From: Taxillus chinensis
Lineage: Eukaryota > Streptophyta > Magnoliopsida > Santalales > Loranthaceae
DNA: 64,000 nt
Direction of reading: 5' to 3'
Assembly: GCA_023512835.1 (NCBI GenBank)
Contig: CM042088.1
Coordinates: 7,618,078 to 7,682,077, forward strand
This document shows, one piece after another, positions 5,293 through 58,672 of the stretch. Positions within the stretch are counted from its first letter, which is position 1. Every line of letters begins with the position of its first letter. The notes beneath the pieces were generated by a model. The model was not told where the DNA came from. It ran no database searches and saw only the letters and a list, made by a program, of their open reading frames with translations. Made by a program: the position numbers and the translations under genes.

Positions 5293-5677
5293 TGTCACGG
5301 ACCGAGGCTTATCCTAGCATACTTAGGCTATTTTGGGGTATTTTCCCTTTGTAAAGTGTTGTACTTAGCTTATAGAGTAAGTTGTAGAGATTTTAGATTT
5401 CGATCATATATGATGTCTCCTGGCGACATAGCCAAAAAAGTGTTAACATCTATATGTAGGGGAGTGATGTTGTAAAGCTTTCAAGCAATCAATACAATCG
5501 TTTGTTGCCTTCGTTTAAATCGATCTTTCGCTAAGCGCTTCCCTACACAATTGCTTTACAACGGATCGATGGGTTCCGATCCAAATGCGACGAGTTAGGC
5601 TGACCTAGCGTTCCTTCATACGGGTGGGAACTAGGTGCCGCACGGGTTAAGCTGCTATAAAGGCTGACCCCGTGACA
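5293..5677 (+). repeat. 5' LTR of mosaic element (385 bp)
   Basis: It starts TGTCACGGACCGAGG and ends ACCCCGTGACA. It is followed by two bases and the PBS TGGTATCAGAGCC (5680-5692), which matches a tRNA-iMet 3' end. Against the 3' copy I count three single-base differences (near 5303, 5526 and 5619). Confidence 0.93.
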
Positions 5678-6486: not shown

Positions 6487-6568
6487 AGTGGTATCAGAGC
6501 ACTGGGCAGAAATCACATTGCGTTAGCATCCGCAGGGACCATCGCAATGCTTTGTTTTAATTAAACAG

Positions 6569-7192: not shown

Positions 7193-7564
7193 GGCTTATC
7201 CTAGCATACTTAGGCTATTTTGGGGTATTTTCCCTTTGTAAAGTGTTGTACTTAGCTTATAGAGTAAGTTGTAGAGATTTTAGATTTCGATCATATATGA
7301 TGTCTCCTGGCGACATAGCCAAAAAAGTGTTAACATCTATATGTAGGGGAGTGATGTTGTAAAGCTTTCAAGCAATCAATACAATCGTTTGTTGCCTTCG
7401 TTTAAATCGATCTTCCGCTAAGCGCTTCCCTACACAATTGCTTTACAACGGATCGATGGGTTCCGATCCAAATGCGACGAGTTAGGCTGACCTAGCGTTC
7501 CTTCGTACGGGTGGGAACTAGGTGCCGCACGGGTTAAGCTGCTATAAAGGCTGACCCCGTGACA
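7180..7564 (+). repeat. 3' LTR of mosaic element (385 bp)
   Basis: It starts TGTCACGGACTGAGG right after the purine tract GGGTGGGGGAGAA (7167-7179) and ends ACCCCGTGACA. It is the same length as the 5' copy, with three differences. The copia-1 ORF resumes immediately after it. Confidence 0.93.
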
Positions 7565-7569
7565 CTCGT

Positions 7570-7797
7570 CTGCCTCCCAATGCTCTTCTCAATTCGACAA
7601 CTCTGAGCAAAGGAGAAGTTTCCCAACAACCTGACGGAGAAAGCTGTGGAGCCTATGTCTGCTACTTTATTAGGCACCTTTTGAAGTATGATCCTAACTG
7701 GAATTATTTTTTCCTGTGCACTAAAGAACACCCTAAGCGGCTAAGGGAGCAGGCAGCAACTAAAATCTTCAAGTACAGTAAGCCTTACAATTCTTAG
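7570..7797 (+). pseudogene. Copia-1 third ORF, 3' part: Ulp1-like protease C-terminus with catalytic Cys
   Basis: This continues the Ulp1-like domain beyond the inserted element. In the frame starting at 7570 the sequence reads without stops to TAG at 7795-7797. It contains SQQPDGESCGAYVCYFIRH, which matches the Q...D/N-G-x-S-C-G signature of C48 proteases. The Gln is the usual oxyanion residue and the Cys the nucleophile. The end, TKIFKYSKPY, is shared by all three copies (FKYSKPY). With the His and Asp upstream, copia-1 keeps every residue of the expected catalytic set. The gene is nonetheless broken by a stop, a frameshift and two inserted elements. Substrate and role are unknown; SUMO-type deconjugation is only a family-level analogy. 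Confidence 0.8.
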
Positions 7798-7941
7798 TAT
7801 AACTTTTGTACTAAGGCTTACTTTGTATTATGGTTGCTGACATAGTGGAAATTTCTTTTGTTTATCCTTATCTCTGTGTATATCTTGCTACCAAACTAGA
7901 TCAGATTACAAAGGGTTTGGCATATCCATATTGGGGGAGAT
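7798..7941 (+). other. Copia-1 3' UTR and polypurine tract
   Basis: This short noncoding stretch ends in ATATTGGGGGAGAT at 7928-7941, the PPT. The same CATATCCATATTGGGGGAG-type end is found before the copia-2 LTR (42887-42901) and, on the - strand, before the copia-3 LTR (48431-48455). Confidence 0.8.
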
Positions 7942-8149
7942 TATTGGATCAAACCTAGAATTTGGATGATGTGGATCAAACCCAATGTAACTTGATTTAA
8001 GATGTTTCATATTTATTCTAAGTCTGTGCAGAAGATAAAACTTTAATTCGGACCTACTTCTGTAAGAGCAAAGCAAAGGACAGGATATATAATCCTGATC
8101 CGGATTATCATGAGTGTCATCAAACACTTGGTAAATAACCAAGTCTTCA

Positions 8150-8545
8150 TCCGGAGTAAGGACTCTCCGTACGGACTAATCACTCGACAAAACGACTACG
8201 GAATCCGCGCGTTTATTGTTGATTAGACTAAGTCACTTTATGCGGAATGAGAATCCGAGTCTCCACCTCGTACGGAGTAAGAGAGATTTATTGCAGAGTA
8301 AGAAATGACTGATGCGAGTAAGAACAACTGATGTGGAATAAGGAATCCGAATCATTACTCATGCGGAGTAAGGACAACTGATGCGGAATAAGGATTCCGC
8401 ATATCTAGCTCATGCGGAGTAAGGAAGCGCTGACACAGAATAAGGATTTCAGGACTTCATATACACGGAGTAAGCAACAACTGATACGGAGTAAGGATCT
8501 GAGCCTCATTGATACGGAGTAAGGAAATCTACACCGGACTAAAAA
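8150..8545 (+). repeat. Minisatellite in copia-1 LTR U3 (GCGGAGTAAGGA-type)
   Basis: Degenerate units of 25-45 bp share a core G(C/A)GGAGTAAGGA or GCGGAATAAGGA, often preceded by ACTCAT. Adjacent ACTC and GAGT form short hairpin arms. Matching arrays sit in every LTR of this family: 43120-43710 (+), 45178-45775 (-) and 47636-48215 (-). Confidence 0.8.
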
Positions 8546-8829
8546 CACGCTACTTCAACTTATTCATACCACATTTATGATATCAGCTCGCTGTGTTCCA
8601 ATGTAAGACAAACTCATTGAAAATCTAAACTATCTTACACGTGGAACACTCAGAGTTGTGGATGCAGTCCCAAATGCAATTGGAATCAAGCGAAGTAATT
8701 CAATTCACTTATGCTTCCAATATTTCGAGCTCCATATCCGAAGCAGTTATAACATAAGCATTTTCCGAGAAGAACTTAATGTTTACATAGTGCTCGGAAA
8801 ATATAGTTCCAAGTTAGATTCCTAGGATG

Positions 8830-8841
8830 TCTATATATATC
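8830..8841 (+). promoter_or_regulatory. Copia-1 LTR TATA box
   Basis: TCTATATATATC lies downstream of the repeat array. The copia-2 LTR has the same AGGATGTCTATATATA context at 43966-43981, which supports a promoter role. Confidence 0.6.
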
Positions 8842-9160
8842 TGTAGTGTTGTACACTTAAAAGAGTGTACACATACAAAAGAGAGAACTGTTACGCGTGT
8901 GAGAAAGGTTGTTGTACAAGAGCTCATAGAGATTAAAAACGCAATGTGTGTAACTATAAAACTGAGTGCTATTGTAATCAGCTGTAATTGCTGCTTATTT
9001 TGTTGTAATTATCATCAGATAATAAAGGAAAATACTTCCATTATCTGGTTATCTTCCGCACTGATTTTATATCTTTTAGCCAGATTGTGCTATACCTGTG
9101 AGGGAAAAAGAGTTTTGATTTAAGCCTATTTCCCCCCCTCTAGGCTACTAGGGACCAACA

Positions 9161-41748: not shown

Positions 41749-42750
41749 CGATCTACCAAAGAGGGGAAGAATCATCCATTTTCTCTTCCTCCATCTGATG
41801 CTGCTCCCTCTACTACTGACGAGGCTGCTAGTCCTTCTGCTCGGATCTGGATTACTGGAAAGCAGCCTACTACTACTCTCCCTCTGGGTCTCCCTATCCC
41901 CAAATGCCGCCGCTACCCACCTTCCAAGGCTAGCTCCTCCAGTGCTGCTCCATCCTCTTATGCTTTTGCTGTGGACATCACCTTCCTCCCATCATACGCG
42001 GAAATAGATCTAGCTGATGAGGATGGAAGCATGACTATGCCTGTTCCATTTCCAAGCAAAGATGTCTAACTATAATCCCTTTCTCACCTGAAGATATAAG
42101 CAATATACTTGCTGAGGAGGGACTGTACATAACTAAAGACATTAATAACTTTGCTCTAGTAGTGGAGATGGAATCCAGGTTGTTTCCCTCTCTTTACAAG
42201 GATGCAAACCTTGTTGATATCTTGCTATGTTGGTCTAAAGATTATATTCTAGCTTCTTCCCACATCCAGACCTTCATTCACGGAACTGCAGAGAACAACA
42301 AATCATGGAGCACTCTTAATTCTGTTCTCATTCCGTACTGGGTCAACTCACCGCACTTCATGCTTGTAGTCTTCATGATCAGCTCAAGGAAGGTTCTCCT
42401 CCTTCATTCTCACTAAGTCGTTGATCAACAAGTGAGAAATACTCAACTAGAACCCTTGCTCCTAAATCTATCTGCTGCAGTAAGAGAGAGCATGCTCTTT
42501 GAGTCTGTTGGACAGCCTCCCTTGGCTCCTAATGCAAAGCTGATTTCGGTGATCCGTGCCAAAGATACAGTGCCTCAACAACCCAATGAAGAGAGCTATG
42601 GTGCCTATGTCTGCTCCTTCATGCAAGGTTCTCTTCCGGTTTGATAAGTCCTGGAATAATGTGCTCAATTACACTAAGGGGCAGATGATGCAGCTACGGG
42701 AGCTAACAACATAAATGATTTTCAAGTATAGTAAGCCTTATGTTCCATAA
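41749..42750 (+). pseudogene. Copia-2 third ORF fragment: linker and decayed Ulp1-like protease
   Basis: It starts mid-linker directly after the LTR fragment and is homologous to the 3' half of the copia-1 ORF. Visible are TTLPLGLPIPKCRR, VDITFLPSYAEIDLADEDG, LSPEDISNILAEEGLYI and LIPYWVNSPHFMLVVF (candidate His kept). Next are VLLLHSH, where the Asp position reads His, and VPQQPNEESYGAYVCSF, where the nucleophile Cys reads Tyr. It ends FKYSKPYVP with TAA at 42748-42750. Stops fall near 42068, 42414 and 42642. With two catalytic positions lost, this copy cannot be an active protease. It sits directly upstream of its PPT and 3' LTR, as in copia-1. Confidence 0.82.
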
Positions 42751-42901
42751 TTGTTTATTCTATGTACTAAGGCTGAAATTATGTTCTTGCTGATGTAAAT
42801 CAATGGATGGAGCAATTATCTTTATCTCTGTATATTTATTTTCCGCTTTGCTAACCAGATCATATTACAAAGGGTTTTGGCATCTCTATATTGGGGGAGG
42901 T
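42751..42901 (+). other. Copia-2 3' UTR and polypurine tract
   Basis: Noncoding, ending TATATTGGGGGAGGT before the LTR. It is closely similar to 7798-7941. Confidence 0.8.
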
Positions 42902-44308
42902 TGTTGGATCAAACCCAGAATTTGGATGATGTTGATAAAACCCTATGTAATTTGGTATGAGATCTTTTAATATAATTTCTAATATGTTACAGAAGACAAG
43001 TGTTAATCTGGATCTTCAATCGTGAGAACAAAGTTAAGGACAAAATACATAATCCTGATCTAGACCAACGTGAGTATCATCAATCAACTTGGTAAATAAC
43101 CAAGTCATTATAAGATACGGAGTAAGGATTATTAGCGTTGACTAATCACTTAAAGATATGGACTAAGAAATCCGAGTCTATCACTTAAATGGACTTAGAA
43201 TATTAGTCTACCACTCATGCGGAGTAAGAGAGAAATTGCGGAACAAGGAGCTGTCTTTCACTCACGCGGACTAAGGACAAAAAGGCACAGAGTAAGGAAT
43301 ACGAGTTTGTCATTTGCGTAGAGTAAGGAAGGACTTGTGCAGAATAAGAATCCGAGCCTGTCATTCATGCGGAGTAAGGAACGACTTCTGCAGAATAAGG
43401 ACACGAGTCTTTCGTTCGCATGGAGTAAGGAAAAGAGAAGCGGAGTAAGGAATCCAAACCTTTACTCAAGTAGAGTAAGGAAGCACTGGCACGGAGTAAG
43501 CCATCTGAACCTTTACTCAAGCGGAGTAAGAAAACGCTGACACGGAGTAAGCCTTCCAAATCTTTCGTTCACACGGAGTAAGGAAGCACTGACACGGAAT
43601 AAGGAATCAAGTATCAAACTGACACGGAGTAAGCAACCACTGACACGAGTAAGGATCCGAGCTTCGTTAACACGGAGTAAGGAACCTTACAACGGACTAA
43701 GATAACGCTGCTCCTACTAATCAGCTACTCATTCAAAGTCATCAGCTCGCTTTGTCCTGATGTAAGTAGGATCTGTTGAACATTTATCATCTTACACGTG
43801 GAGACAAAGCCTTTAATGCAGTTGAAATCATGCGAAGCAATTCAATACGCTTATACTTCCAACATCTTGAGTTCCACATCCACATCAGTTAAAGCAGATG
43901 TATTTTCTGAGAAGTCTTCAATGCTACACACTACTCGGAAAATTCTGTTCCAAGAATATTTCCTAAGGATGTCTATATATACTGAGTCTTGTATATTTTT
44001 ATGAGGGTGCATACATGTGAAAGAGCTTAGAGGATTTCATTTTTGGCTAGTGTGTGCATTACTGTAAAATAGAGTGCTACTATAAACAGAAGAAAGATAC
44101 ACTTTCAGTAGAACCAAAAGCTTATACTTAGCTTTAATCTGCTACAATTTGTTATAAGTATCTTGTGATAATAATACAAATTACTTCCTTTATCAAGTTA
44201 TCTTCCACATTGATTTTACCTTTAATCAGATTAAGTGTTGCAACAAAAAGAGTAAGAAAAGTTTTTGAAAAGTCTATTCACCCCTTTCTAGGCTTCCTGG
44301 GACCAACA
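42902..44308 (+). repeat. Copia-2 3' LTR (1407 bp)
   Basis: It starts TGTTGGATCAAACCC and ends TCCTGGGACCAACA, perfect TGTTGG/CCAACA ends. The repeat array is at about 43120-43710 and the TATA box at 43972-43982. The right flank GTGGG belongs to a Tat-type pol on the - strand. Confidence 0.9.
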
Positions 44309-46999
44309 GTGGGGCAATCGGAAGTTGTCTTTTGGACTTGCCTTGTTGAGCTCGCGGTAGTCCACACACATATGAACTTTTCCTCCTTTCTTTGGGACCG
44401 GTACTATGTTAGCCACCCATTCTAGATAGTGGGCTACACTAAGGAAGCTAACATCCCATTGCTTCTTGACTTCCTCTTTGATTTTTAGAATCATTTCTAA
44501 TCTCATTCTCCTTAGCTTTTGTTGGATAGGCTTGCACTCGGGCTATTGGTCCCTTGGAGCCTAGAGGGAGGTGAATAGGCTCTTATCAAAACTCTTTTCT
44601 AACTCTTTGGCACAACACTTATCTGGTTAAGAGATAGAATCAATGTGGAAGATAACCAGATAGTGGAAGTATTTTGTTTTATTATCAGTATGATAAGTAC
44701 AACAAAATGGAAGTAGACTAAAGCTTGAAAGCTTTTAGACCTACTTAACAACTCTTTAACACTCGTTTACAATGTACTCACACGCTAGCCTCCATGATCT
44801 CAACAAGCTTTGGTACATACACAAAATTATTACACGCTCACAAACTATTTATAAAATGTACAAGTGTTGCTATTTATAGAGACATCCACAAGAGATAGCC
44901 TTGGAACTTGTTGTTCCAAACATTGTGCACATTTACTGTTTCTCGGAAATCTCTCTGCCTCAATTGCTGCGGATGTGGTCTTCAAGATCTTTGGTTTGCA
45001 ATGCATAAGAGTCTTTGTAAATTCCCAAGTGTAGTTAAAGTTGTGTCCACATATTCGGATGATCCACGTGTAAGATGCTTTAGGTTCTCAACAAGTTTGT
45101 CTTACATCGGGAAGCAGTGAGCTAGTGACTTTGAATACGAAGAGATAAGTTGAAGTAGCGTCTTAATGAATCCGGTGTAACGTTTCTTACTCCGTGTTAA
45201 ACTAAGCTCAGATCCTTACTCCGTAATACTGATTGCTTACTCCGTATCAATTTGGTACTGGAATCCTTATTCCGTGTAATCGCTTCCTTACTCCGTATGA
45301 AAGAGAAGGTCGGAGTGCTTACTCCGCATCAGCACTTCCTTACTCCACATCTAGTTTCCTTACTCCGCATGAGTTAAAGGAACGGATGGCTTACTCCGTA
45401 TCAGCACATCCTTACTCCGCATGAGTGAGTGGTTCAGATTCCTTACTTCGCAACTAGTTTTCTTACTCCATGCGAATAAAGACTCAAGTCCTTATTCCGT
45501 AGAAGTACTTCCTTACTCCGCATGTATGGAAGACTCAGATTCCTTACTCCGTGTCTTCTTTACTTTAGTCCGCTTGAGTGGAAGACTTAACTTTTTAACT
45601 CCGTGACAACTCTCTTACTCCGTGCGACTTTGTAGACTAAGATTCTTACTCCGCATCTATTTGACTTAGTCCATTTAAAGTATTAGGTGCAGATTCCTTA
45701 GTCTGTAGCTTTTAAGTTCTTAGTCCGCACGAATGATCCTTATTCCGTATGAAGTAAGGACTTGGTTATTTACCAAGTGTTTGACAACACTCATTCTCAC
45801 CTGGATCAAGATTATGTATCCTATCCTTAGCTTTGCTCTCACAAGTGAAGATCCGGATGAAGATCATATCTTCTATAATGACTTAAGACAAAACAACAAA
45901 GGTCTCAAATCAAATTACTTAAGGCTTTATCAGCATTATCCAAATTCTGGGCTTAATCCAACACGGGCTTCGAAGGCAATTGATGTTGCACTATACTTGT
46001 ATCCAGTCCAGGCATATCTTTATAGGACCAAGCGAATACATCAATTTAAGTCTTCAGAAGTTCCTGAAGTCGGTTTCTAGTATCATTAGGGATCAAGGAC
46101 CCTAAGCTTAGTTCTTTAGGTTCAGCAGGTGTCTCAAAGTTTATAACTATGATCGGGTCTTTGCTAGGGATGGTGGGCCGATCTTCCCTTTCTAACATAC
46201 ATTTAATGTCTTCAGGCAGCTTAGGGTCTTCCACCGTACCAGCTCCTTTACCTCAAACACTGGTTGCTCCCAATTTGGATCTAGGTCCAGTCTTAAGCAA
46301 CTCGATTCTTCTTTACTTTCCCAATCTTTAATTTTATCATACCTGTTCGAAAAAGTTTGACTTGTTCAACCATTTATGATAATGTAGGTGGTATGAGATG
46401 TAAAAGGATGCCTAACCCATATCTTCCAATGGCGCTTTGGATGATGGTAGGTTCTTTGATTCCTTGTTCTTGTAAGCCAAGGCCTTGTCCTACTTTGTGA
46501 CCCAGCTTTAGCGTGACTGACGCAACCATCTTTGCTGCTTTAGGTAGTTATGCCCTAATATCCTAATCAGTTGTAGGATTTGGGAAGTAGGTTGCATTGA
46601 CAACTTCAAAAGAACGGAAGCAGCATTCAAGAATGTCTTCGCTGCCTTCAATGCATTCAGAAAGGATTTCTGCTTCCCTATACACACAGATAAGCTGCCC
46701 ATTTATGATGAACTTGACCTTCTGATGGAGGGTTGAAGGAATTGCTCCTGCCACGTGGATCCATGGTCTCCCTAACAGGCGACTGCAATAAGGAGCGATA
46801 TCCATCACTTGAAACTCAACAGAGAACACACTTAGGTCAATTTGTAGTGGTACATCTAGGGTTCCCACCACTTCTCGTCTTTCTCCGTCGAAGGCCCTTA
46901 CTAACATATTGGTTAGTCGAATGCAAGTCGAATCCACCGGTAGTTGCTTCAGGATGGGTGCTGGCATAATATTCAATGAAGATCCATTGTCAATCAGCA
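44309..46999 (-). pseudogene. pol: Second Tat-like element fragment: RT start, linker, protease and G-patch (solo LTR inside)
   Basis: This is a 2.7-kb - strand piece closely related to the element at 23571-40617. From the right, the protease region reads DNGSSLNIMP, RAFDGERREVVGTLDVP, FSVEFQVMDIAPYCSRLLGRPWIH. A shortened G-patch block and the candidate splice acceptor follow near 46345, then the linker (EDPKLPEDIKCMLEREDRPT, EPKELSLGSLIPND). At 44309-44506 the RT fingers read LEMILKIKEEVKKQWDVSFL, VPVPKKGGKVHMCVDYRELN, SPKDNFRLPH. A solo LTR occupies 44544-45963. Copia-2 cuts it on the left and copia-3 on the right. About 60 residues after the G-patch are missing compared with the first element. 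Confidence 0.85.
44544..45963 (-). mobile_element. Solo LTR of the copia-1/2/3 family (1420 bp), TSD CGGGC
   Basis: On the - strand it starts TGTTGGATTAAGCCC and ends TCCAAGGGACCAATA (CCAACA mutated). CGGGC flanks it at 44539-44543 and 45964-45968. The repeat array is at about 45178-45775. The Tat pol frame resumes after it. Confidence 0.92.
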
Positions 47000-48430
47000 T
47001 GTTGGTCCCTGGGAGCCTAGAAGGGAGTGAATAGGCTCTAATCGAAAACTCTTCTTTTGTCTCTGGCACAACACTTATCTGCTTAAGAGATATAATCAAT
47101 GTGGAAGATAACCAGATAATAGAAGTATTTTGTTTTATTATCAAGAGATAATTACAACAAAATAGAAACAGATTAAAGCTTGTAAAGTTTTTTCGATCTA
47201 TTGAACAATTCTCTTAACACTGTTTACAATTACTCACACACTAGCCAGTATAATCTCTATTAGCTCTTGTACATACATGCACGTATATATTTCTCTATAA
47301 CACATTGTACGCATTTTAATAAAATATATATAACCATCCGTGAAAAACATCTCTCGAACTTGTTCTTCCGAGCAATGTGCAGCATTGAATGTTCCTCGAA
47401 AATCTCTCTGCCTTGATTGCTGCGGATGTGGAGTTCAAGATCTTGGGTTTATAAAGCATAAGTGTCTTTGCAAGTTCCCAAGTGCAGTTAAAGTTATGTC
47501 CACATATCTGTGTGATCCACGTGTAAGATGCTTTAGGTTTTGAATGAGTTTATCTTACATCGGTACACAGCGAACTGACGACTTTCAATGCGAAGATGAT
47601 AAGTTGAAATAGCATCTTCTTAATCCATCGTAAAGTTCTTTATTCCGTGTTAATGAAGCTCGGATCCTTACTCTGTGTCAGTGGTTGCTTACTTCGTGTC
47701 AGTTTGATACTGGAATCCTTATTCTGTGTCAGTGCTTCCTTACTTCGTATGAATGAGAAGTCCAGAGAGCTTACTCTGTATCAACGCTTCCTTACTCCGC
47801 ACGAGTTCCTTATTCCGCATGAGTTCCTTACTCTGCATGAGTTCCAAGGCAGATGGCTTACTCCGTATTAGTGCATCCTTACTCTTCATGAGTAAATAGG
47901 TTTGGATTCCTTATTCCGCATTTCTTTTTCTTACTCCGTGTGAATAAAGGACTTGGGTCCTTATTCCGCACAAGTCGTTCCTTACTCCGCATGTATGAAA
48001 TACTCGGATTCCTTACTCCGTGTCTTCTTGTCCTTAGCCCGCTTGGGTGGAAGACTTAGCTTTTTATTCCGCGATAACTGTCCGTTACTCCATGCTAGAT
48101 GTAGACTAGGATTCTTATTTTGCATTTATTTGACTTAATCCATTAAGGTGTTAAATGTAGATTCCTTAGTCTGTAGCTTTAAGTGTTTGGTCTGCACGAA
48201 TGATCCTTATTCCGTATGAAATGTAGACTTGGTTATTTACCAAGCGTTTGACGACACTCACGTTTGTCCGGATCAGGATTATGTATCCTTTCCTCATCTT
48301 TGCTCTCTCAAGTGAACGTCCGGATTAAGATCATATCTTCTACAACAGCTTATGAATAAACATGCAATGTCTCAAATCAAATTACATAGGGTTTTATCCA
48401 CATCATCCAAATTCTGGGCTTAATCCAACA
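47000..48430 (-). repeat. Copia-3 3' LTR (1431 bp)
   Basis: On the - strand it begins TGTTGGATTAAGCCC at 48430 and ends CCCAGGGACCAACA at 47000. The PPT (TTGGGGGAGAT, 48431-48441) is on its right. The left flank CAGCA is Tat protease sequence. The repeat array is at about 47636-48215. Confidence 0.9.
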
Positions 48431-48576
48431 ATCTCCCCCAATTATGGATATGCCGAAACCCTTTGTGATTTGATCTGATAAGTGAAGCAAAAAGATAACA
48501 TACAGAATAAAGATAACTTCTATTTTCATTAGGTCAGCGACAAAGTACAATTCAGCCTTGATACATGAATTTTACA
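48431..48576 (-). other. Copia-3 polypurine tract and 3' UTR
   Basis: Noncoding, with CATAATTGGGGGAGAT on the - strand next to the LTR. It matches the copia-1 and copia-2 ends. Confidence 0.8.
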
Positions 48577-50208
48577 TTAAGGTACATAAGGCTTACTATA
48601 CTTGAAGATCATTGTTGTTGCCTTCTCTCGAAGCTCTATTGTTTGCTCCAAAGTGTAGTCTTGGATGTTCTTCCAGTCTTCATCCACCCTTATGAAAGAT
48701 TTGATGAAGAAATAGACAAAGGCTATGCAGCTATCTCCATCGGGTTGTTGAGGCACTTGCTTTTTGCTCCGGATCGCCGCCTTCAACTTTTCAGTAGGAG
48801 CCAAAGGAGTTTAGCCCATTTCTTGATAAAGCCCGGATTACTTTACTGCCTTTGTCAGTTGAAGACGCAATGGCTCCAGTTGATCTTTTCTAACTCTTTT
48901 ATCCATAACTTGATGAGAATCAATCAGAAGCATCTGCTTTGATGGAATCAAAAAGACAATCAGCATGAAGTGCGGCGTCTTGACCCGGTACGGAATGAGG
49001 ATGGAGGAAAGATTTTTCCATGGCTTGTTGTCCTCAACAGTTTCCTCGATGAAGGTCCGGATGTGGGCTACGTCTAGAAGATAGCCCTCAGACCAACATG
49101 GCAAGACATCAAACAAGTGTCCGTCCTTGTACAGAGACAGAAATAGCCTCATCTCCATCTTTACTGCCCGAGAGAAGTTGCCTATGTCATCTGTAATAAA
49201 TAGGCCCTTCTCAGAACGTAGAGTTTGAATATCTTCAGGGGAGAAAGGATACATATCGGATAGACATCTTCGCTCGGCAATAGACGCGACATACTTAGCC
49301 ATTTCATTGCAAACACTTCCATTCGCATCATATGGATCACGATCCGCATATGATGGGAGGAAGGTGACAGCCACGGATGGAGAGGTCGAAGGAGGAGTTG
49401 CACTGGAGGAGATTGGCTGAGAGAAGCGGCTATGTTTGGGGATAGAAACTCCTGGAAGCAGTGTAGATGCAGGCCTCTTACCAACACGAGCTGAGGAAGA
49501 TGCAGGAGGATCAGATGATACTCTCTCCCCCGTTTTGTCAGATCGCCGAGGAGCGGTAAGAGGACGAGCCATTGTATGTGCCAAATCCACGAAAGAGGCA
49601 GACAATGAGTGCACGAAAGAGGCGACGAGATCCATCTTCTACTCGTTGGAAGTAGAAGAGTCAGATAGGGCAGAGAGGAGTTGAGCACCAAGAGCATCAA
49701 CCTTGATGGCAATTTGGGCGCTCTAGGCTTGGGTGTGTCGGTCTAGCTCTGCAGAGATCACAGCATCAGAGTGAACTGTTCCAAACGAGGCACATCCAAG
49801 CACAAGCACTGGGGCCTTGGAGGACTCCCCCGCATGAAGTGGTGCAGGAGTGCGTTGGGCATAGGAGTCAGCAGCTGGAGAGAGGAGTTGGTTAGCAGCA
49901 GTAGTAGAGGGGCCACCCATCGAAGGCATCCGGGGCATCAGAACTGCTTTGACCAGAGAGGTCAACAACGGGGATTGCTGCAGCAGGAGAGGAGGGCCCG
50001 GCCTCAGCAAGGGAAGGCACCCATGCGTCATGGGCTGGTCCGGAGGTAACAACAAAAGGAACGTCAAGAATGTTAGCTGGCGTAAGGAAGCCGTTGTCCA
50101 GGTTCTAGACGATCATTTCCTCCAGGGTTTTGGTATGGCGAGTGTAATACACTCAGAGGTCATTATCGGGGATGGTGGCTATGCAGGCGAGGCTGAAACG
50201 GAACCATA

Positions 50209-50652
50209 GGTCTGTTCTCCCCCTTTGTCAGACATCGAATCACATCATAGCACACACCTATGGATCTGAGCTGCCACCATGTGAGACCGTCATGGAATTT
50301 TCCTTGTAGCTCCCCCTCAATCCACATCCTGATTGAGATCATACTGATTCGATCACCTGGTGACAGGGGTTTGTATTCCAATCCAATACTACCGCACACC
50401 ACAGGACACGCTACTCGATCACACTATACTGAGAAAACTTTCGATATCATAGAACACCTTTCCGAGAGACAACCAGGCTTAGATACCAATTGTTAGGATC
50501 AGGCCAAGGTGCATGCCTGCCCACATGTCACAATATTGTCCACTTTGGGCTCGCCACATTGGCCCGCATGGCTTTAAAACGCATTGTAACAATTTAGGCC
50601 TACTCCACTATATTAACCTCCTTAGTTTCCCCAAATTCTTCCATGTGGGACA
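50209..50652 (-). mobile_element. TRIM-like insert with one LTR (LTR 50491-50652, PBS, internal, PPT)
   Basis: On the - strand an LTR-like unit starts TGTCCCACATGGAAG at 50652 and ends GATCCTAACA at 50491. It is followed by AT and TGGTATCTAAGCC (PBS-like) and about 280 bp of noncoding sequence ending in ACAAAGGGGGAGAACAGA. The copia-3 ORF is recognisable on both sides. Its LTR shares CACAATATTGTCC(A/G)CTTTGG with the TRIM at 50997. A second LTR is not seen and the flanks (TCCGT on the right) do not match, so the left boundary is approximate. Confidence 0.55.
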
Positions 50653-50996
50653 TCCGTTAAGGTGTTGGTGGGGAGATGGTCTAGGTAGTCTCGAGGTTGA
50701 GGAAGCAGGGGCAAAGGAGCTTCCGGAGGAGAGGTAGGGACATCAGCCACTGCCATAGCAACAGAAGCATCAACGGCGGCAGCAACAGCGGGAATTGGGT
50801 GCAGGGACATCAGCACCAAAAGGCGCTGGAGAATCAGCTAGAAGTAAACTTGGCTGAGACGGCCCTGCAACCTCGGATGGGTCAGCACGAATGCTGTGCT
50901 AGGAGCCTCGGGAGATGGAGGGTGCAGCTATGGACCGAATCCGTGAGGACCGGTGGGCAGAGCTGACTTTGGTGGTAGAGCTATCGGCAGGGTCAC

Positions 50997-51484
50997 TGTT
51001 GGACCTCGGCTAGGGCACTCACTATCACAATATTGTCCGCTTTGGCACTTGCGCGCCCACCCATGGGTCGCAGCCCACACGGATTTGTTTCTAACGGGCC
51101 GTGACCCGTTAAAACATGCTGTGACAAGGTACATATGAGCCTCCTCATTAAGACGACCTCAATGTTCGCCTTAACCAATGAGGGATTCATCTATGGGACG
51201 TTAGAGACTCAATAGTCTCGCCCCCAATCCCACCACCGGTCTAGAGGACCCAGCTCTGATACCACTTGTTGGACCTTGGCTAGGGCACTCACTATCACAA
51301 TATTGTCCTCTTTGGCACTCACGCACCCACCCATGGGCCGCAACCCGCACGGATTTGTTTCTAACGAGCCGCGACCCGTTAAAATGCGTTGTGACAAGGT
51401 ATATATGAGCCTCCTCATTAGGACGACCTCAATGTTCACCCTAACCGATGTGGGATTGATCTATGGGACGTTAGAGACCCAACA
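50997..51484 (-). mobile_element. 488-bp TRIM: two 218-bp LTRs and a 52-bp internal region
   Basis: LTRs lie at 50997-51214 and 51267-51484, both 218 bp, with TGTTGG...CCAACA-type ends (one end mutated to AATA in plus sense). The 52-bp interior (51215-51266) holds only the PBS (- strand AGTGGTATCAGAGC, 51253-51266) and a PPT (GGGGGCGAGAC, 51215-51225). The flanks GTCAC (50992-50996) and ATCAC (51485-51489) look like a 5-bp target duplication with one change. It codes for nothing and sits in the copia-3 third ORF. Confidence 0.9.
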
Positions 51485-52214
51485 ATCACCAACCGAGCTA
51501 CCCTATTGTTCCGGAGCAGGGAGGAGATGGACAACAACAAAGGGCTAGTGGGCAGTCAGATTCCCATCAGGTGTAACATGGCAGAGGTAGAAAGCCTAGG
51601 GAAAGGAGATGACGCTATGTCCATTGAAGTGGGACGGACGCAGGTGCCGGAAAATGATGCTGAGTATCCGCCCAAAGGATTGATTCTTCGGGTTGTTCCC
51701 TAGCAGCCGGAACAAGAAAGTACCCCAGTCCATCAGAAAACCTTCAAAGACTCCGTACATGGCAAGAAGCAGGTCATACGGGACGGGGTCTAGGGCTGTT
51801 GTGCAAGCCTGAAGATAACGGCTCAGTATGGTCGTCATACAACTATAGCGACCCTAGGAGGACTTCACCTTATATTCCTTCCCTTTGTAAGTGCAACCCA
51901 GGGAAGCTGATGAGGACTGAAAGGAAGAGATGGAGAGCGGTGTGAAAGACGCTTGGGGTGATAACGATGGATTCACCCCTAACGGTGGATCGGATGGAGT
52001 CGGTGGTGCATCGCATTGTCCGGTAGAACTTAGCTATATCGTCGATGAGGAGATCGACGGGATCAAAGACCAGGTTCAGGATGTGGCTTGCTTCCAGTAT
52101 GGGGCGAAGCTCCAGAAACCATGCCGAAGGATTGGAAACAGCATTCCAATCGACCAGATGGTCGGGATTAACGCCAGAAAGAGAGGTCTTAGGTGCCATT
52201 GAAGATGAATGCAA

Positions 52215-53904
52215 AGAAGGGAAAGGAAATTTAGGGTTTGAGAAAAGGAAGAGCGACTATGAAATTTGAGAGTGATAAGTCGCTCTTTGCGTGAAGGCTT
52301 ATGATATATATGGCGGGTCAATGGATGCTAGCGGGTCTAGGGTTTAAGTAAAATGAACAGTGAACCGCCTGGCAATCTGATGTCATTAGCCTTGATAGGT
52401 GCGCATCTCCGAATAAAGAGATGATGTGGAGACAGCAGAACCAAGCATTTATGACGGTTGTATGCTTTCTTCTGGAAATGAAATGACTAATTGCCCATCT
52501 CGAGACGTGCATTTAATGGACCATCATTATCCATCCTCAAAAATACGCGATGTAAGATAATACTTTGTTTATCGCAAGTTGAGAGTTCCAAGAGTCAGGA
52601 GGAATTGAACCGACTTTCATCCAGGGTAAAGATAATCCGTAGAAGAATATTCGGATGAAAAACAGACCATGTTCGTAAAAACAGGTGCTATAAGAGAAAA
52701 ATAGATTCCTTTGCTGTCTTGAAGTCAAAGAGAAAAGAAGTACCATGACACTTCAAATCCGAGACATCAGACAAGATATATATCAGTGAAAATGTAAAGA
52801 GAATCTGAACCTGTAGCTTCACAAAAATAAACTAAAAAGAATAGAAAGCTTTACAAGTTGAGATTAGTACGGATATGAAACAAATATTCTAAATGAGAAT
52901 AGCATAATCCGAACTAATGAAAAACAAACAGAACTTATGCATTTAAACATGAAGCGAGACATATACATACGTTAAGGATCATTCTTACCAAAATCAAAGT
53001 ATAGGTCAGATAAAAAATACACAAGTTCATATTGGTAAACATAGCAAAACCTTCATGCTGAACGCCGTAGCTAAGATGAATTAACTCTATATGAGTTGCC
53101 CAAATTAAGATTCATGAGTGAGAATGGATTAAAGAACACATGCCAAAAATAATCAATTAATTATCATATTAAAATGCACAGTTGAAGAAACCAAAATATT
53201 CAATCATGCCACAATTCCGATTCAACAATGCATGCCCAGTTAGATCCAAAAGTGAGAGTTTAGAGGGAAGAGCATCCAAGACAAATCAGGGGGTTATTAC
53301 GGAAGTAATAGATGAAGCTTTTGCTCCCCCTTAGATCGCGGGATCCTCTCGAGAAAGACTCCCCCTCGGATAGACAGCCAGGAAAGAGGTCACGAGACAT
53401 ATAAGGGGGGTATTGCTTGAGTAATTGATAAAGCATTTTCCCCCCCTTAGACCATCCGATCCTCTCGATGGACGTTTCCTGCTTGATATTTAGATCTTGA
53501 GAAATTGCTGTCTATCCTTGAGGAAACTCCACTTGAGAAGCTGATCAGACTGCAAATGTGATTTTATCCACCAGGCATTCCGAGCTAACCCATTTCATTT
53601 CTTTAACCAAGCATGTTAATATTGCAATCAATATGAAAAAGCATTTGACATGTGTTGAGAGATTAAAATTTGAATCATGAAATCCTAAGGAGGTTTTATT
53701 CATATATTTTTAATTATGTTAGCTTAAGCAACTTCAGTCGGGAAACGCAAGCATCCTCCCATATGAAAATATGAGAAAATTATCAGAACACAATGCATGA
53801 CACAAGTAAACATGATCAATAGTAAGAACAGTAAGTGTCTAATGCTCATCATGAAACACAATGCATGTTCTGAAAGAAATACTATTAGAATGATAAATTA
53901 GAAA
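52215..53904 (-). other. Copia-3 spacer between pol and third ORF
   Basis: 1.7 kb, AT-rich and without a credible gene. It contains a diverged direct duplication of about 85 bp at 53288-53365 and 53404-53475 (GGGGGTTATTACGGAAGTAATAGATGAAGC-like, each followed by CCCCCTTAGA and GATCCTCTCGA). A promoter or splice acceptor for the third ORF may be here, but I see no firm signal. Confidence 0.6.
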
Positions 53905-56321
53905 CTATGTAGATATGTCAAGCATACCTAATTTGAGGAGTAGTTCGGAAAATCTTGCATCAAGTAGGGGCTTGGTGAGTATGTCTACAAGTTGATCATC
54001 TGTAGCAACATGTTCGAAAGATATGTGCTTCTTAAGAACATGATCTCGGATGAAGTGATACCTGACTTCAATGTGCTTTGTCTTTGGGTGCATGACAGGA
54101 TTGTTGCTGATAACAATTGCACTGGTGTTGTTGTAGTATAGTGGAACAAATGTCATATTGAACTCGTAGTCAGTAAGTTGACTTTGCATCCAGAGAAGCT
54201 GTGTGCAGCAACTCCCAGTAGCTATATATTCGCCTCAGCAGTAGAAGTTGATACGGAATTCTGCTTCTTACTGAACCATGAAATCAATTTGTTTCCAAGG
54301 AACTGACAAGTACCACTAGTGCTCTTCCTGTCGATGTGACACCCGGCAAAATCAGCATCAGAATATCCGGATAATGTGAAGTTGGACTCCTTTGGATACC
54401 AAAGTCCCAAATTCACTATCCCTTTGAGATACGGCAATATCCATTTTACATGAAGCATGTGTGACTCTTTGGGATTCGCCTGATATCTTGCACAAATGCA
54501 AGTTACAAACATAATATCCAAGCAACTTACTGTAAGGTACAACAATGATCCTATCATCCCTCTGTATTCAGTCACATTTACTAATTCTTTGTTAAGATCA
54601 GGATCTAACTTGGCACTGACTGGCATGGGAGTCTTCACGGGAGTTGAGTTTTGCATTCCGAACTTCTTGATTAAGTCTCATGTGTACTTAGATTGGTTGA
54701 TGAAGATTCCATCCTTTATTTGTTTAACTTCTATTCCAAGGAAGTACGATAATTCTCCCATCATGCTCATTTCAAACTTGCCAGTCATAAACTTCGCAAA
54801 CTCTTCACAAAGCTTTGGATTAGATGATCCAAAGATGATGTCATCCACATAAATTTGTACGATCAGTGAATGACCTTTCTCTTTCCATACAAATAATGTG
54901 GTGTCAATCTTCCCTTTTCTAAAGTTGTGTTCGAGCAAGAATTCCGATAGTGTGTCGTACCAGGCTCTTCGAGCTTGCTTCAATCCGTACAAGAGTTTCC
55001 GTAGTTTATATACCATATGTTCAGCCTTGTGTTCAATGAAGCCCGGAGGTTGTTTAACATAAACCTCCTCTTGAAGATCTCCATTAAGAAAAGCGCTCTT
55101 GACTTCCATTTGATAAACTGTGAAGTTTTCATATGATGCATATGCCAGGAACATTCGGATTGCTTCAAGTCTAGCTATTAGAGCAAAGGTTTGGTCATAA
55201 TCAATGCCTTCTTCTTGACGATATCCTTTGGCTACCAGTCGAGTTTTGTTCTGGATTACTATTCTATCAGTATCAAGTTTGTTCCAGAATACCAATTTAA
55301 CTCTAATGACTTGTTGTGACCATGGCCTTGGTACTAACATCCATACTTCGTTCTTCTTGAACTGATTAAGCTCTTCTTGCATAGCGTCTATCTAGTTTGA
55401 ATCTTGAAGGGCTTAATCCACCACCTTTGGCTCTATCTGTGATAGAAAACAGGAGTAGAGACACAAGTTGGAGGTGGCTGCTCTCGCTCTTACGCCAGCA
55501 GTAAGATCACCAATCACTTGATCTGATGGGTGGTTTCGAGTCCACCTATAGTTCTGCGCAAGTGGTGGTGAGTAATCAACGATTTGAAGCTCTGCCAGAT
55601 CAGGTGGATCTTGTACATCGGCTAGTTGAGCTTCTTCTGGGCCAGCTATATCCGTATGATGAACAGTTCCGGAAGTAGTTTGAGGTTCTTCGGCACTGTG
55701 ACTTTCAGTATTAACTGGTTTAGATGGACTAGAAGGTTCTCTGATGTCATGGCTGTCCGTATCAATTTGTCCGGAGTTGAGTGGAAGTCCTAAGTCCGAA
55801 TCTTTGGAAGCATCATTAGTGACATTTCTTCTTGCATCTCTGGTGCTCGGTGATTCATCAGGAGTTGTGGCAGGAACATGTTTAAACTGAGAATAGTCAA
55901 TCGTGTCTGTATGATCCTGCACGATTGAATTTGAAGTTCCTACACTTGACCAATCAAGGTTAAACTCATCAAAATCAACATGGATAGAGTCTTCAACTGT
56001 TAAATGTTTTCTATCGAAGATGCGATAAGCCTTGCTGTGTAACGAGTATCCGACAAAGATCCCATCATCGGATTTTGGCTCAAATTTACTCCGAGCCTCT
56101 TTGTCATTGTTTAACACGTAGCAAGCACACCCAAAAGCTTTGAAATGAGAGATTGACGGCTTCCTGCCTCTCCATATCTCATAGGGTGTTTTCATGGTAA
56201 CCTTATTGATAAGAGTTATGTTCTGAACATAACATGCAGTGGATATAGCTTCAGCCCATAGACTGAGAGTTCTATTCTCGACAGAGAGAGTCTCAGGAGT
56301 ATTTATGTTTGGGCAGACCAT
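53905..56321 (-). pseudogene. pol: Copia-3 pol: integrase C-terminal part, reverse transcriptase and RNase H
   Basis: On the - strand, order is integrase then RT then RNase H, diagnostic of Ty1/copia. The integrase tail starts near 56321 (LSLWAEAISTACYVQNITLI, PYEIWRGRKPSISHFKAFGC, FVGYSLHSKAYRIFD). RT has [70 protein letters not shown] and the catalytic [14 protein letters not shown]. RNase H shows SGYSDADFAGCHIDRKSTSG, SWFSKKQNSVSTSTAEANI and, after a stop, LYYNNTSAIVISNNP and HIEVRYHFIRDHV. The wording fits the SIRE/Maximus branch. Stops fall near 55385, 54660 and 54200. The integrase catalytic core is missing. Confidence 0.9.
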
Positions 56322-56390
56322 TTACCAAGTCAAGTGACGTTATTTTAGAAAAGTTTTAAAATTTAAATGAGTGCAATGCTTGTGTCATAG
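56322..56390 (-). other. Deletion scar in copia-3 integrase
   Basis: Only about 70 AT-rich bases separate the protease/pre-integrase part (ending LTKASDEES at 56391) from the integrase tail (starting at 56321). The zinc finger and DDE core, normally some 200 residues, are absent. Confidence 0.75.
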
Positions 56391-57060
56391 CTAACTTTCT
56401 TCATCTGATGCTTTAGTGAGGAAGCATACAGGGTCAGAAGAATTATTTCTTAAGACCACTGAATATATGTCCCCATCTCTTAATCCGGATAATTTAATAT
56501 CTCCGGATAAGTTTTCCCTAACTGTGTAGGTGTTAGACATAAAGGAAACAGTAAATCCTTTATCACATAAATTATTGACACTCAGCAGATTATGCTTCAA
56601 ACCTTCGACTAGTGCAACCTTAGTAATTGATACATAGCCATTGGTTAAAGTGCCATACCCCATAGTCTTACCTTTACTATTGTCACCATATGATACGGAT
56701 GGGCCTCGTTTGTCAGCAACTACAACAAGCAAAGACTGGTCACCCGTCATATGTCCAGAGCATCCACTATCGAGTATCCACTTGCTTTTATTAATCTTTA
56801 ACTTCAAGTGGTCCGACAATGCATTCCAGAGATGCTCCTGCAAGACAACAGTTTACACTTTTGGTGCCCAAACTTGTTTCGGGCGGTTAGGAGAAACAAC
56901 CACAATGTCAACAGTTCCCAATTTTGCTTTGCTAGGAACTTTAGCTTTCCAAGTTGACTTTACTTTGTTAGTGTCAGTTGCTTCTTTTATTCGGGTTTTC
57001 TTGGGAGAGTTACTCCTTTGAGATTTAGATTTAGATTTGCTAGAAAAACCCTTTTTGATG
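56391..57060 (-). pseudogene. pol: Copia-3 protease and gag-pol linker
   Basis: On the - strand a basic linker (SKSKSKSQRSNSPKKTRIKE) leads into KINKSKWILDSGCSGHMTGD, the copia aspartic-protease motif with DSG. It is followed by VSYGDNSKGKTMGYGTLTNG and VALVEGLKHNLLSVNNLCDK, the usual sequence toward the pre-integrase domain. A stop lies near 56845. The protease motif itself is intact. The frame ends at the deletion scar at 56390. Confidence 0.88.
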
Positions 57061-58672
57061 AACTGATCTTTATTAATATAAACTTGATTACAAAGCCAGT
57101 CATCAGATAGACTCCAACACTTATAATGATAATGGCCTATTTCTTTACAGATAGAATAGACACTATGATACGAACCACAAACAAGGGATACAGGTTTCTT
57201 AGGTTTTACAGGTTTTCTACTTTGTTCCCTTTGGCTAGTCCTTTGCGATTGGGTGACGCACTCTTGGCCCTAGATGCGTCATCCTTAGCTTTTCCGTTCT
57301 TTCTGGGTGCTGCATTTTCGACTTTAACTATAGCAGCCTTCCCTTTATGTTTAGGTCGGGTGCTACTACTTCGGGATTAGCAGTAACAACCTCTCTTCCA
57401 TAGTCATACACTATGGTGCCACCTGAAATGAAACCATCCAACGATTTAGATGTACTAACAGGATAAAGGTTGGTTAGTTTTGGAATGAAATCTGAGGGAC
57501 ACTCAGTAGCTTGAGTGGAGGTAGATGGTTCGGAGCCAAGGCCATATTTAACTTGGATATCGTCCGTATTAGTCCTAAATGTAGAAGCTATTTCCCCCAA
57601 TTTTAGCCACTTATGATTTATTTCCTTTTCCTTTTCAAGTTCGTTCTTAAGTCTTTTAAGATTAATAGTTAGGCTATTTAAGTTGGTATTTAGCAAATGA
57701 TTTTCTGCTCTTAGGTCGTGATACCAAGCCTCTTTACTCCTGAAGTCAACTATATCTTTTTCAAGTCTTGCAACAGTAAATTCAAGACGTTTAGCTTTAC
57801 CTTCTATCTTTGTACATTTGAGTAATTATTAGTCTCTCATTCTTTTCATGATCACGTTCAGCAGTAAGAGATTCTAATTTACTCATGAGCTCAGAGATAG
57901 AAGTTACCTCAGTGTTTTCCATGAGGTAGACGTTCGGTTTTGCGGTTAGCTCATCATCAGAGGATTCCTCCTCTTCTTCCAAGCCACTAACATACTTTGT
58001 GACGAATGCCTTCCTCTTATCCTTGCTACTTTCTGATGTGGAGCGTTGGGGTTTAACCTTATCACTTTTATCGACCGTCTTTGATTTGGATTTACAATCC
58101 TTGGCCCAGTGATCGGGTTTCCCACAGTTGTAGCATTCTTGGGAACTTGACTCTGATCGCTCCTTCCTTCTCGATGATGATGAGGAGCCTCTTCTGAATC
58201 CTTTTCTGCTTTTCCGCAGGAATCGCTCGAAGGATTTGACAAAAAGAGCTATTTCTTCTTCAGCGTCCGAGTCAAAGTTCTCTGACTCTTTTGTATCATC
58301 ATCCTGCTGTATACTGAGACATTTGGTAGCTTTAAAAGCTACCCCTTTTCTTTTCGAGCTACTTTCTCATCTCGGTCAGTATATTTGAATCTAACCTCAT
58401 GAGTCCGTAGCTCTCCATATAGTTCTTCAAGGGGAGCATTCTGCCAATTTTTGTCTGCTTGCATCTGGACCTGCTTGGAGTAGTAGCGATCCGACAAGGA
58501 GCGAAAAAACTTGTCATTGATTTGAAATTGAGTGTAGTGCTCATTGACAGTTTTTCACTCAAGAATGAGCTTGTCGAATCTCCGATAGATGCTTTTGAGG
58601 GATTCGACAGGTTTACGATTAAGTCTCTCAAAGTTCTGTCTGAGAGCACAGATGACATTCTGCATTTGGGAC
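57061..58672 (-). pseudogene. gag: Copia-3 gag, N-terminus missing
   Basis: From the right on the - strand the capsid-like part shows VESLKSIYRRFDKLILEWKT, the Gln/Lys-rich QVQMQADKNWQNAPLEELYG and a basic stretch. The zinc knuckle is CYNCGKPDHWAKDC (CX2CX4HX4C, near 58090-58135). Downstream are KRKAFVTKYVSGLEEEEESS and a coiled-coil-like region (ISELMSKLESLTAERDHEKN, then LNSLTINLKRLKNELEKEKE). This long coiled-coil tail after the knuckle is typical of SIRE-type gag. Frameshifts occur near 58360 and 57800. The first part of gag and the 5' LTR are cut off by the LTR starting at 58673. Confidence 0.85.

What the first reader, a model, noticed from the sequence alone, without database searches (positions are those of the whole stretch)
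48431..58672. SIRE-like copia family with a transposon-domain + Ulp1-like protease gene in the env position
Copia-3 has gag, pol and then, on the same strand before the 3' LTR, a long ORF that looks like a plant-transposon-type domain, a Pro/Ala/Ser linker and a C48 (Ulp1/SENP-like) protease. The same ORF sits next to the same PPT and LTR in copia-1 and copia-2, so it belongs to the family and is not a chance neighbour. SIRE elements are known for an env-like ORF at this place. Ulp1-like capture is known for DNA transposons (Mutator-like, CACTA). I do not know of it as a fixed gene of a copia family. A deSUMOylase-like function acting on host silencing or on gag is speculation.
Basis: partly seen in the sequence, partly recalled or inferred. 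Interest (0 to 1): 0.88.

Follow-up and report, generated by a model that had tools for sequence, protein, structure and literature searches.

The report
Ulp1-like protease gene in copia retrotransposons
Three old, broken copies of one plant retrotransposon family carry, where retroviruses keep their envelope gene, the remains of a gene that ends in a ubiquitin/SUMO-type protease, so this puzzling "envelope-like" gene looks more like an enzyme than an envelope.

Summary
Three diverged copies of one Sirevirus-like copia family carry, in sense just before the PPT and 3' LTR, pieces of one gene. Its C-terminal end matches Pfam Peptidase_C48: copy 1 at 36.4 bits (E 6.5e-9), above the cut-off; copies 3 and 2 at 18.9 and 14.8 bits, below it. 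Profile comparison with Ulp1 relatives is strong for the Gln-Cys half and weak for the His-Asp half (hhalign probability 92.8% and 14.9%; 0 of 500 shuffles reach either score). Catalytic residues, with Ulp1 spacing, survive in copies 1 and 3. The N-terminal part resembles Transposase_32 (32 bits, cut-off 45). Substitutions are codon-periodic in the N-terminal and His-Asp parts, not in the LTRs. The copies are separate insertions, and none has an intact ORF. Genome-wide fixation, phylogeny and function could not be tested; the genome search did not complete. Ten searches of open papers showed no copia element with this domain; Ulp1 capture is known in MULE, CACTA, Ginger and NeSL/Utopia elements. 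Best reading: a deconjugating protease, more likely acting on silencing or Gag than an envelope.

The parts
2897..3811 (+). copy 1: N-terminal Transposase_32-like domain and start of the Pro/Ala/Ser linker
   Evidence: PF20167 32.1 bits, E 1.3e-7, cut-off 45
3815..4531 (+). copy 1: linker piece, next in the same frame after a TAA; the gene leaves this frame before 4531
   Evidence: 54-56% identical to the copy-3 linker pieces; no Pfam family
4296..5292 (+). copy 1: end of linker and His-Asp half of the C48-like domain
   Evidence: 47-50% identical to copies 2 and 3; hhalign to the Ulp1 set
5293..7564 (+). young gypsy-type insertion splitting the copy-1 protease domain (not part of the gene)
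   Evidence: 385-nt LTRs 99.2% identical; CTCG on both sides
7565..7797 (+). copy 1: Gln-Cys half of the C48 domain, C-terminus and stop (open piece 7555-7794 was searched)
   Evidence: PF02902 36.4 bits, E 6.5e-9, cut-off 20.7
7932..7939 (+). copy 1: terminal polypurine tract TGGGGGAG
7942..9160 (+). copy 1: 3' LTR
   Evidence: LTR alignments
42021..42413 (+). copy 2: His-Asp half of the C48-like domain (Asp changed to His)
42417..42641 (+). copy 2: Gln-Cys half (Cys changed to Tyr)
   Evidence: PF02902 14.8 bits, E 0.026
42625..42750 (+). copy 2: C-terminal tail in another frame, with stop
42892..42899 (+). copy 2: terminal polypurine tract TGGGGGAG
42902..44309 (+). copy 2: 3' LTR
57328..58366 (-). 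copy 3: gag remains with CCHC zinc knuckle
   Evidence: PF00098 32.3 bits
53905..56852 (-). copy 3: pol remains (Pol_BBD, SH3_retrovirus, RVT_2; RNase H-like stretch by eye)
52200..53904 (-). copy 3: linker with AGGGGGAG tracts at 53366 and 53331
51599..52199 (-). copy 3: N-terminal part of the extra gene from its ATG, with a frameshift (pieces 52199-51873 and 51853-51599)
   Evidence: 38% and 64% identical to copy 1
50995..51488 (-). TRIM-like insertion in the copy-3 gene (not part of the gene)
   Evidence: two 221-nt repeats 89% alike; flanks GTGAT/GTGAC
49654..50215 (-). copy 3: linker pieces
   Evidence: 54-56% identical to copy 1
48841..49638 (-). copy 3: end of linker and His-Asp half of the C48-like domain
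48580..48810 (-). copy 3: Gln-Cys half of the C48 domain and C-terminus (stop 48579-48577)
   Evidence: PF02902 18.9 bits, E 0.0015
48433..48440 (-). copy 3: terminal polypurine tract TGGGGGAG, followed by AT/TG
47000..48430 (-). copy 3: 3' LTR
44544..45963 (-). solo LTR of the same family with target-site duplication GCCCG

Best explanation
The family is a Sirevirus-like copia retrotransposon whose third gene, in the env position, encodes a protein with an N-terminal Transposase_32-like domain, a long Pro/Ala/Ser-rich linker and a C-terminal C48 (Ulp1/SENP-like) cysteine protease with a His-Asp-Gln-Cys active site. Shown here: domain identity by sequence and profile (firm for the Gln-Cys half, weaker for the His-Asp half), location, sharing by three separate insertions, and codon-periodic divergence in two of its three tested parts. 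Inferred: in a working element the protein is a nuclear or cytosolic deconjugating protease that removes a ubiquitin-like modifier from a protein that limits the element (a silencing factor, or the element's own Gag), and the N-terminal domain is a targeting or assembly module. I put about 0.75 on 'active deconjugating or processing protease in working elements', about 0.35 on 'acts against host silencing' and about 0.2 on 'acts on Gag or particles'. A retroviral-type envelope is unlikely but not excluded.
For: PF02902 is the only Pfam family in 3 of 3 Gln-Cys pieces (36.4, 18.9, 14.8 bits) and is listed in none of the other 21 of 24 scanned pieces (limits E 1, 10 and 0.01). hhalign of the three-copy profile to an Ulp1 set: Gln-Cys half E 3.9e-7, probability 92.8%; His-Asp half E 0.0018 with His and Asp in register; 0 of 500 column shuffles reach either score. 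Spacing His-Asp 17 and Gln-Cys 6 residues in copies 1 and 3, as in yeast Ulp1 (sequence confirmed). Weak PDB matches (best E 0.033 and 0.07) are in good part of this protease type: 8 of 11 by label (ChlaDub2, Dub1, membrane thiol protease) and 7 of 15 (adding Ulp2 and Ulp1). Codon-position bias: N-terminal part 28/16/52 (p 2.8e-5); His-Asp part p 0.007-0.058 (three pairs, both directions), against a lowest p of 0.205 in 81 LTR windows. NG86 dN/dS 0.16 and 0.38 in the His-Asp half, third pair saturated. Precedents, from passages: Ulp1 domains in KIU/VANC MULEs (PMC13317346), and env-position ORFs of rotifer LTR elements that are enzymes (PMC5408684).
Against: No intact copy in the window; copy 2 has lost the catalytic Cys and Asp. 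Only 1 of 3 copies passes the C48 cut-off. Pfam lists no C48 in the His-Asp halves (0 of 3); a PDB profile search with them finds nothing; their hhalign probability is only 14.9%, and in a global-mode control they did not beat shuffles. The Gln-Cys half shows no significant codon bias (p 0.1, 0.71, 0.81), and one pair there has dN/dS 0.88. The AlphaFold model of the His-Asp piece is poor (pLDDT 45) and its fold search gives no significant match. One N-terminal piece of copy 3 has a hydrophobic 19-mer of 1.75, above the customary 1.6 for a membrane segment (threshold recalled), though the matching copy-1 piece reaches only 1.38. No homologue of the gene was found in the collections searched. 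Activity, substrate and localisation are untested.
Confidence: 0.65

Rival explanations
1. A captured passenger: a copia ancestor picked up a Transposase_32-C48 gene from another transposon or host gene, and it was copied along without a role in the life cycle.
For: Ulp1 domains are often captured by plant transposons. All copies here are broken. The Gln-Cys half shows no significant codon bias.
Against: The N-terminal and His-Asp parts diverged with third-position excess, as a constrained protein does. The catalytic residues survive in 2 of 3 copies at about 45-56% protein identity. Distance to the PPT is nearly constant, 134-141 nt.
Confidence: 0.2
2. An envelope or movement protein, as proposed for Sirevirus and Athila env-like genes, acting in cell-to-cell transfer.
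For: Position and orientation; Sirevirus env-like genes are described as sharing transmembrane and coiled-coil domains (PMC3414828, passage). One copy-3 piece has a hydrophobic 19-mer of 1.75.
Against: The C-terminus matches a protease. Nine of 10 pieces stay at or below 1.57 on the Kyte-Doolittle scale, the matching copy-1 piece at 1.38, so no membrane segment is shared by the copies.
Confidence: 0.08
3. A separate DNA transposon (MULE or CACTA with Ulp1) nested in a copia element, mistaken for a copia gene.
For: Such elements with Ulp1 are known in plants, and the window is full of nested insertions.
Against: The same gene lies 134-141 nt before the same PPT in three separate insertions. Transposase_32 has been reported in a sunflower Athila 3' aORF (PMC11728184, passage). 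No MULE or CACTA transposase family, and no DUF1985, was listed in the 24 pieces scanned. Terminal inverted repeats around the gene were not searched for.
Confidence: 0.07

Closest known systems
Sirevirus copia elements with an env-like gene (SIRE1, ToRTL1, Endovir and others; PMC2829016, PMC3414828)
   Same: Third gene in sense between pol and 3' LTR, long linker, several AGGGGGAG tracts, PPT 10 bp before the LTR, LTRs of about 1.2-1.4 kb, CCHC gag.
   Different: Terminal PPT is TGGGGGAG; CGG-CCG palindromic repeats not seen; the extra gene encodes a C48 protease, which the passages I read on Sirevirus env-like genes do not mention.
KIU/VANC genes of Vandal/KI-MULE transposons (PMC13317346)
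   Same: A transposon accessory protein with an Ulp1-type domain joined to another domain.
   Different: DNA transposons; the partner there is VANC, not Transposase_32; here an LTR retrotransposon with the gene in the env position.
Transposase_32-bearing 3' aORF of sunflower Athila (PMC11728184)
   Same: Partial similarity to the same Pfam family, sense, env position of a plant LTR retrotransposon.
   Different: Gypsy, 487 aa; no protease domain is reported for it in the passages read.
NeSL/Utopia non-LTR elements and Ginger1 DNA transposons with Ulp1 domains (PMC4640811, PMC2836005)
   Same: Ulp1-type protease carried by a mobile element.
   Different: Fused to the RT protein or to a transposase; not a separate gene of an LTR element.
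Bdelloid rotifer LTR retrotransposons with enzyme ORF3 (PMC5408684)
   Same: Env-position genes that proved to be enzymes.
   Different: GDSL esterase or DEDDy exonuclease, in animals.

Membership tests
Peptidase_C48 (Ulp1/SENP) | Pfam PF02902 at or above the curated cut-off | tested here: met
   Copy 1, 36.4 against 20.7 bits; copies 3 and 2 at 18.9 and 14.8, below it
Peptidase_C48 (Ulp1/SENP) | His-Asp-Gln-Cys active site with Ulp1 spacing | tested here: met
   All four in copies 1 and 3; copy 2 has lost Asp and Cys
Peptidase_C48 (Ulp1/SENP) | whole catalytic domain alike, not only the Cys motif | tested here: inconclusive
   His-Asp half: hhalign E 0.0018, probability 14.9%, 0 of 500 shuffles; but not above shuffles in global mode and no Pfam or PDB match
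Peptidase_C48 (Ulp1/SENP) | cleaves a ubiquitin-like modifier | not testable with these tools
   needs an assay
Transposase_32 (PF20167) | score at or above the curated cut-off | tested here: not met
   32.1 bits against 45, E 1.3e-7: resembles it, not filed as a member
Sirevirus | terminal PPT AGGGGGAG placed 10 bp before the 3' LTR | tested here: inconclusive
   Position met in 3 of 3; sequence TGGGGGAG in 3 of 3. Two accepted members also deviate in one base
Sirevirus | AT/TG attachment site after the PPT | tested here: inconclusive
   AT/TG in copy 3, AT/TA in copy 1, GT/TG in copy 2
Sirevirus | several PPT copies in the linker | tested here: met
   AGGGGGAG at 53366 and 53331 in copy 3; both lie before the extra gene, unlike most members
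Sirevirus | LTR repeats with palindromic CGG-CCG core | tested here: not met
   CGGA(G/A)TAAG occurs 8, 11, 9 and 15 times per LTR but is not a palindrome; one accepted member, Tnd-1, also lacks the core
Sirevirus | inverted repeat around the PPT/LTR junction | tested here: inconclusive
   Imperfect arms read by eye in the output
Sirevirus | 5' LTR/PBS junction | not testable with these tools
   No 5' LTR of this family lies upstream of the copy-3 gag; copies 1 and 2 lack their 5' parts
Sirevirus | RT places it in the SIRE lineage | not tested
   No reference copia RT set was available
Retroviral-type envelope | transmembrane segment | tested here: inconclusive
   1 of 10 pieces has a 19-mer above 1.6 (copy 3, 1.75); the matching copy-1 piece has 1.38
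KIU/VANC of Vandal MULEs | located in a MULE with VANC | tested here: not met
   Lies between copia pol and 3' LTR in copy 3 and beside the copia LTR in copies 1 and 2

The most novel reading that the evidence does not exclude
The long-puzzling 'envelope-like' gene of Sirevirus-type retrotransposons is, at least in some lineages, not an envelope but a two-domain deconjugating protease (Transposase_32-like plus C48): an LTR retrotransposon's own counter-defence enzyme against SUMO- or ubiquitin-dependent silencing, convergent with KIU in MULEs.
Probability: 0.3. Interest if true: 0.85.

Novelty: new variant of a known kind. Interest (0 to 1): 0.62.

Why it matters
The env-like gene of Sireviruses has no proven function, and the authors of the Sirevirus database wrote that it may not be a true envelope gene (PMC3414828, passage). 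An identifiable catalytic domain turns that question into an enzyme assay and a genome count. It would also add an LTR-retrotransposon case to the repeated capture of Ulp1 domains by mobile elements, and so hint that cutting ubiquitin-like modifiers helps selfish DNA in plants.

Tried and rejected
Protein collection: the copy-1 piece 4296-5351 (its last ~19 residues belong to the nested gypsy) gave 5985 candidates and none at E 0.001; the copy-1 N-terminal 200 residues gave 667 candidates and none at E 0.01. Viral and prokaryote DNA scans with the gene: no relative; with the RT piece: none. These negatives say little, because the collections seem to hold few plant sequences; I ran no control for that in the protein collection.

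Structure: AlphaFold on the His-Asp piece with three rows was poor (pLDDT 45). Its Foldseek list has no match at E 0.001 or below, Ulp1 at rank 20 with E 0.23. Not used as evidence.

My first shuffle control used a global setting. There the Gln-Cys half scored 40.5 against at most 18.1 in 300 shuffles, while the His-Asp half scored 6.3, below the best shuffles (13.8). I repeated it in the local mode that reproduces the compare tool's scores. The global result counts against the His-Asp half.

The three-row alignment of N-terminal pieces aligned non-matching pieces and was dropped. The A1 row of copy 1 includes about four codons of the nested gypsy.

Rejected: one local duplication; disfavoured: envelope protein, nested DNA transposon (see rivals).

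Literature: ten searches in open PMC papers; one search listed 20 of 84 and one search listed 20 of 21. No paper on a copia element with Ulp1/C48 was found among those listed. The only Sirevirus plus Ulp1 paper mentions the two separately, and the C48 plus SIRE paper uses C48 as a sample label. Of the 8 papers with 'Ulp1 protease' and 'Copia', I read passages of 3 (PMC2836005, PMC2528002, PMC5821449); the rest were judged by title. Subscription papers and Repbase reports are not covered. I saw passages only of PMC2829016, PMC3414828, PMC11963269, PMC11728184, PMC13317346, PMC5418596, PMC4640811, PMC2836005, PMC5408684, PMC2528002, PMC8127270, PMC5240378, PMC5821449 and PMC10438386, and two of three parts of PMC7264820; other titles only in search listings.

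Full report
What is there. The finding covers a copia element on the minus strand (copy 3). Pfam finds a CCHC knuckle, Pol_BBD, the integrase SH3-like domain and a strong RVT_2 (227 bits) in order. After pol comes a linker, then an ATG at 52199 that starts a gene in pieces down to 48580, a TGGGGGAG tract at 48440, and a 3' LTR that begins exactly 10 bp after the start of that tract. C-terminal pieces of the same gene, the tract and the LTR occur in sense in copy 1 (2897-9160) and copy 2 (42021-44309). tblastn of 11 pieces (10 of the gene, one RT control) at E 0.01 or below hits only the three copies.

Not a duplication. Alignments of the three 3' LTRs with a fourth, solo LTR (45963-44544) begin at the LTR start or within 2 bp of it, and all pairs run to the same LTR end. 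Aligned identities are 69-80% over six pairs, 70-76% among the three gene-bearing copies. The solo LTR sits inside gypsy pol-like sequence with GCCCG on both sides.

The protease. Piece 7555-7794 of copy 1 matches Peptidase_C48 at 36.4 bits (E 6.5e-9, cut-off 20.7). The corresponding pieces of copies 3 and 2 match the same family at 18.9 and 14.8 bits; none of the three lists another family. In all, 24 pieces were scanned, three of them repeating or lying largely inside others, and only these three list C48. For the His-Asp halves Pfam lists no C48 (0 of 3). The three-row profile A1, compared by hhalign with yeast Ulp1 and nine relatives (A4), gives E 0.0018 but a probability of only 14.9%, with the catalytic His and Asp in register. 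The Gln-Cys half gives E 3.9e-7 and 92.8%. No column shuffle of 500 reaches either score in local mode. In the global mode the Gln-Cys half again stood out and the His-Asp half did not, so the His-Asp half is the weaker evidence. By direct reading, His to Asp is 17 residues and Gln to Cys is 6 in copies 1 and 3, as in the Ulp1 sequence. Copy 2 has His for Asp and Tyr for Cys. The residue before that position is Ser in all copies, as in the membrane thiol protease 5b5q, and Asp in yeast Ulp1. The substrate therefore cannot be called SUMO from sequence. PDB sequence matches are weak (best E 0.033, 0.07) but in good part of this protease type (8 of 11 and 7 of 15 by label).

The N-terminal part. 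Copy 1 matches Transposase_32 at 32.1 bits, below the cut-off of 45. It is like that family and not filed in it. DUF1985, named beside Ulp1 in an Arabidopsis gene name (table of PMC5821449), was not listed. A sunflower Athila env-position ORF has partial similarity to Transposase_32 (PMC11728184, passage), so this kind of domain is already tied to env-position genes of LTR elements.

Selection. With DNA-based alignments, substitutions by codon position between copies 1 and 3 are 28/16/52 in an 85-codon N-terminal piece (p 2.8e-5) and 64/54/83 in the His-Asp piece (p 0.039). All three pairs of His-Asp pieces, in both directions, rank position 2 lowest and position 3 highest (p 0.007-0.058). The Gln-Cys piece is short and not significant (p 0.1, 0.71, 0.81). 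In 81 overlapping LTR windows the lowest p is 0.205. The p values treat sites as independent, so they are indicative. Protein-guided NG86 gives dN/dS 0.16 and 0.38 in the His-Asp half (third pair saturated) and 0.26, 0.25 and 0.88 in the Gln-Cys half.

Decay. Every copy is broken. Copy 3 has frameshifts, stops, a TRIM-like insertion and another insertion. Copy 1 has a frame change and a gypsy with nearly identical LTRs inside the protease domain. Copy 2 is truncated. These copies make no such protein; the argument concerns the family, not these loci.

Which family. The features fit Sireviruses as described in PMC2829016 (passages): long linker, extra AGGGGGAG tracts, PPT position, LTR length, CCHC gag. 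They do not fit fully: the terminal tract differs in one base in 3 of 3 copies, the AT/TG site is exact only in copy 3, the LTR repeat CGGA(G/A)TAAG is abundant but not a CGG-CCG palindrome, and the extra tracts lie before the gene. I call it Sirevirus-like. No RT tree was made.

How it may work. An envelope is disfavoured but not excluded: the C-terminus is protease-like, and no strong hydrophobic stretch is shared by the copies, though one copy-3 piece reaches 1.75. An enzyme in the env position has precedent in rotifers (PMC5408684). Ulp1 domains recur in MULE and CACTA (PMC2528002), Ginger1 (PMC2836005) and NeSL/Utopia (PMC4640811), and in KIU proteins of Vandal MULEs, which induce hypomethylation of related elements while the Ulp1 role is unknown (PMC13317346). 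I therefore favour a deconjugating protease that helps the element escape silencing, and next one acting on Gag. These steps are inference.

Limits. The source genome could not be searched (genome search, eight unanswered calls) and no homologue came from the collections tried. The test 'copies that lack the gene' is thus open, beyond 3 of 3 here plus one solo LTR that carries no internal region.

Noticed in passing
window 51488-50995 (-): TRIM-like miniature LTR element: two 221-nt repeats 89% alike, a TGGTATCAGAGC primer-binding-like site between them, GTGAT/GTGAC at the flanks.
   Followed up: partly
window 5293-7564 (+): Young gypsy-type element with 385-nt LTRs 99.2% identical, nested in the copy-1 protease domain; only 4 bp (CTCG) shared at the flanks.
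   Followed up: partly
window 45963-44544 (-): Solo LTR of the same copia family inside gypsy pol-like sequence, with duplication GCCCG.
   Followed up: yes
window 36526-35975 (-): DUF7745 (PF24924) ORF, 76.9 bits, upstream of a gypsy gag (34590-32671): possibly a 5' extra ORF of that gypsy.
   Followed up: no
window 39884-40066: 52-nt tandem array, 3.5 copies, 96% matches, carrying the LTR-type motif CGGAATAAG on the minus strand and weakly matching the family LTR (E 3.5e-6), about 2 kb upstream of the copy-2 remnant; origin unexplained.
   Followed up: partly
window 52400-52150 (-): TATATATC stretch and CT-rich leader with AAACCCTA before the ATG of the copy-3 extra gene: possible internal promoter.
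   Followed up: no
window 50640-50220 (-): Second insertion in the copy-3 gene with an ATTGGTATC primer-site-like stretch (50490) and two AGGGGGAG tracts (50317, 50224); possibly a fragment of another copia element.
   Followed up: no
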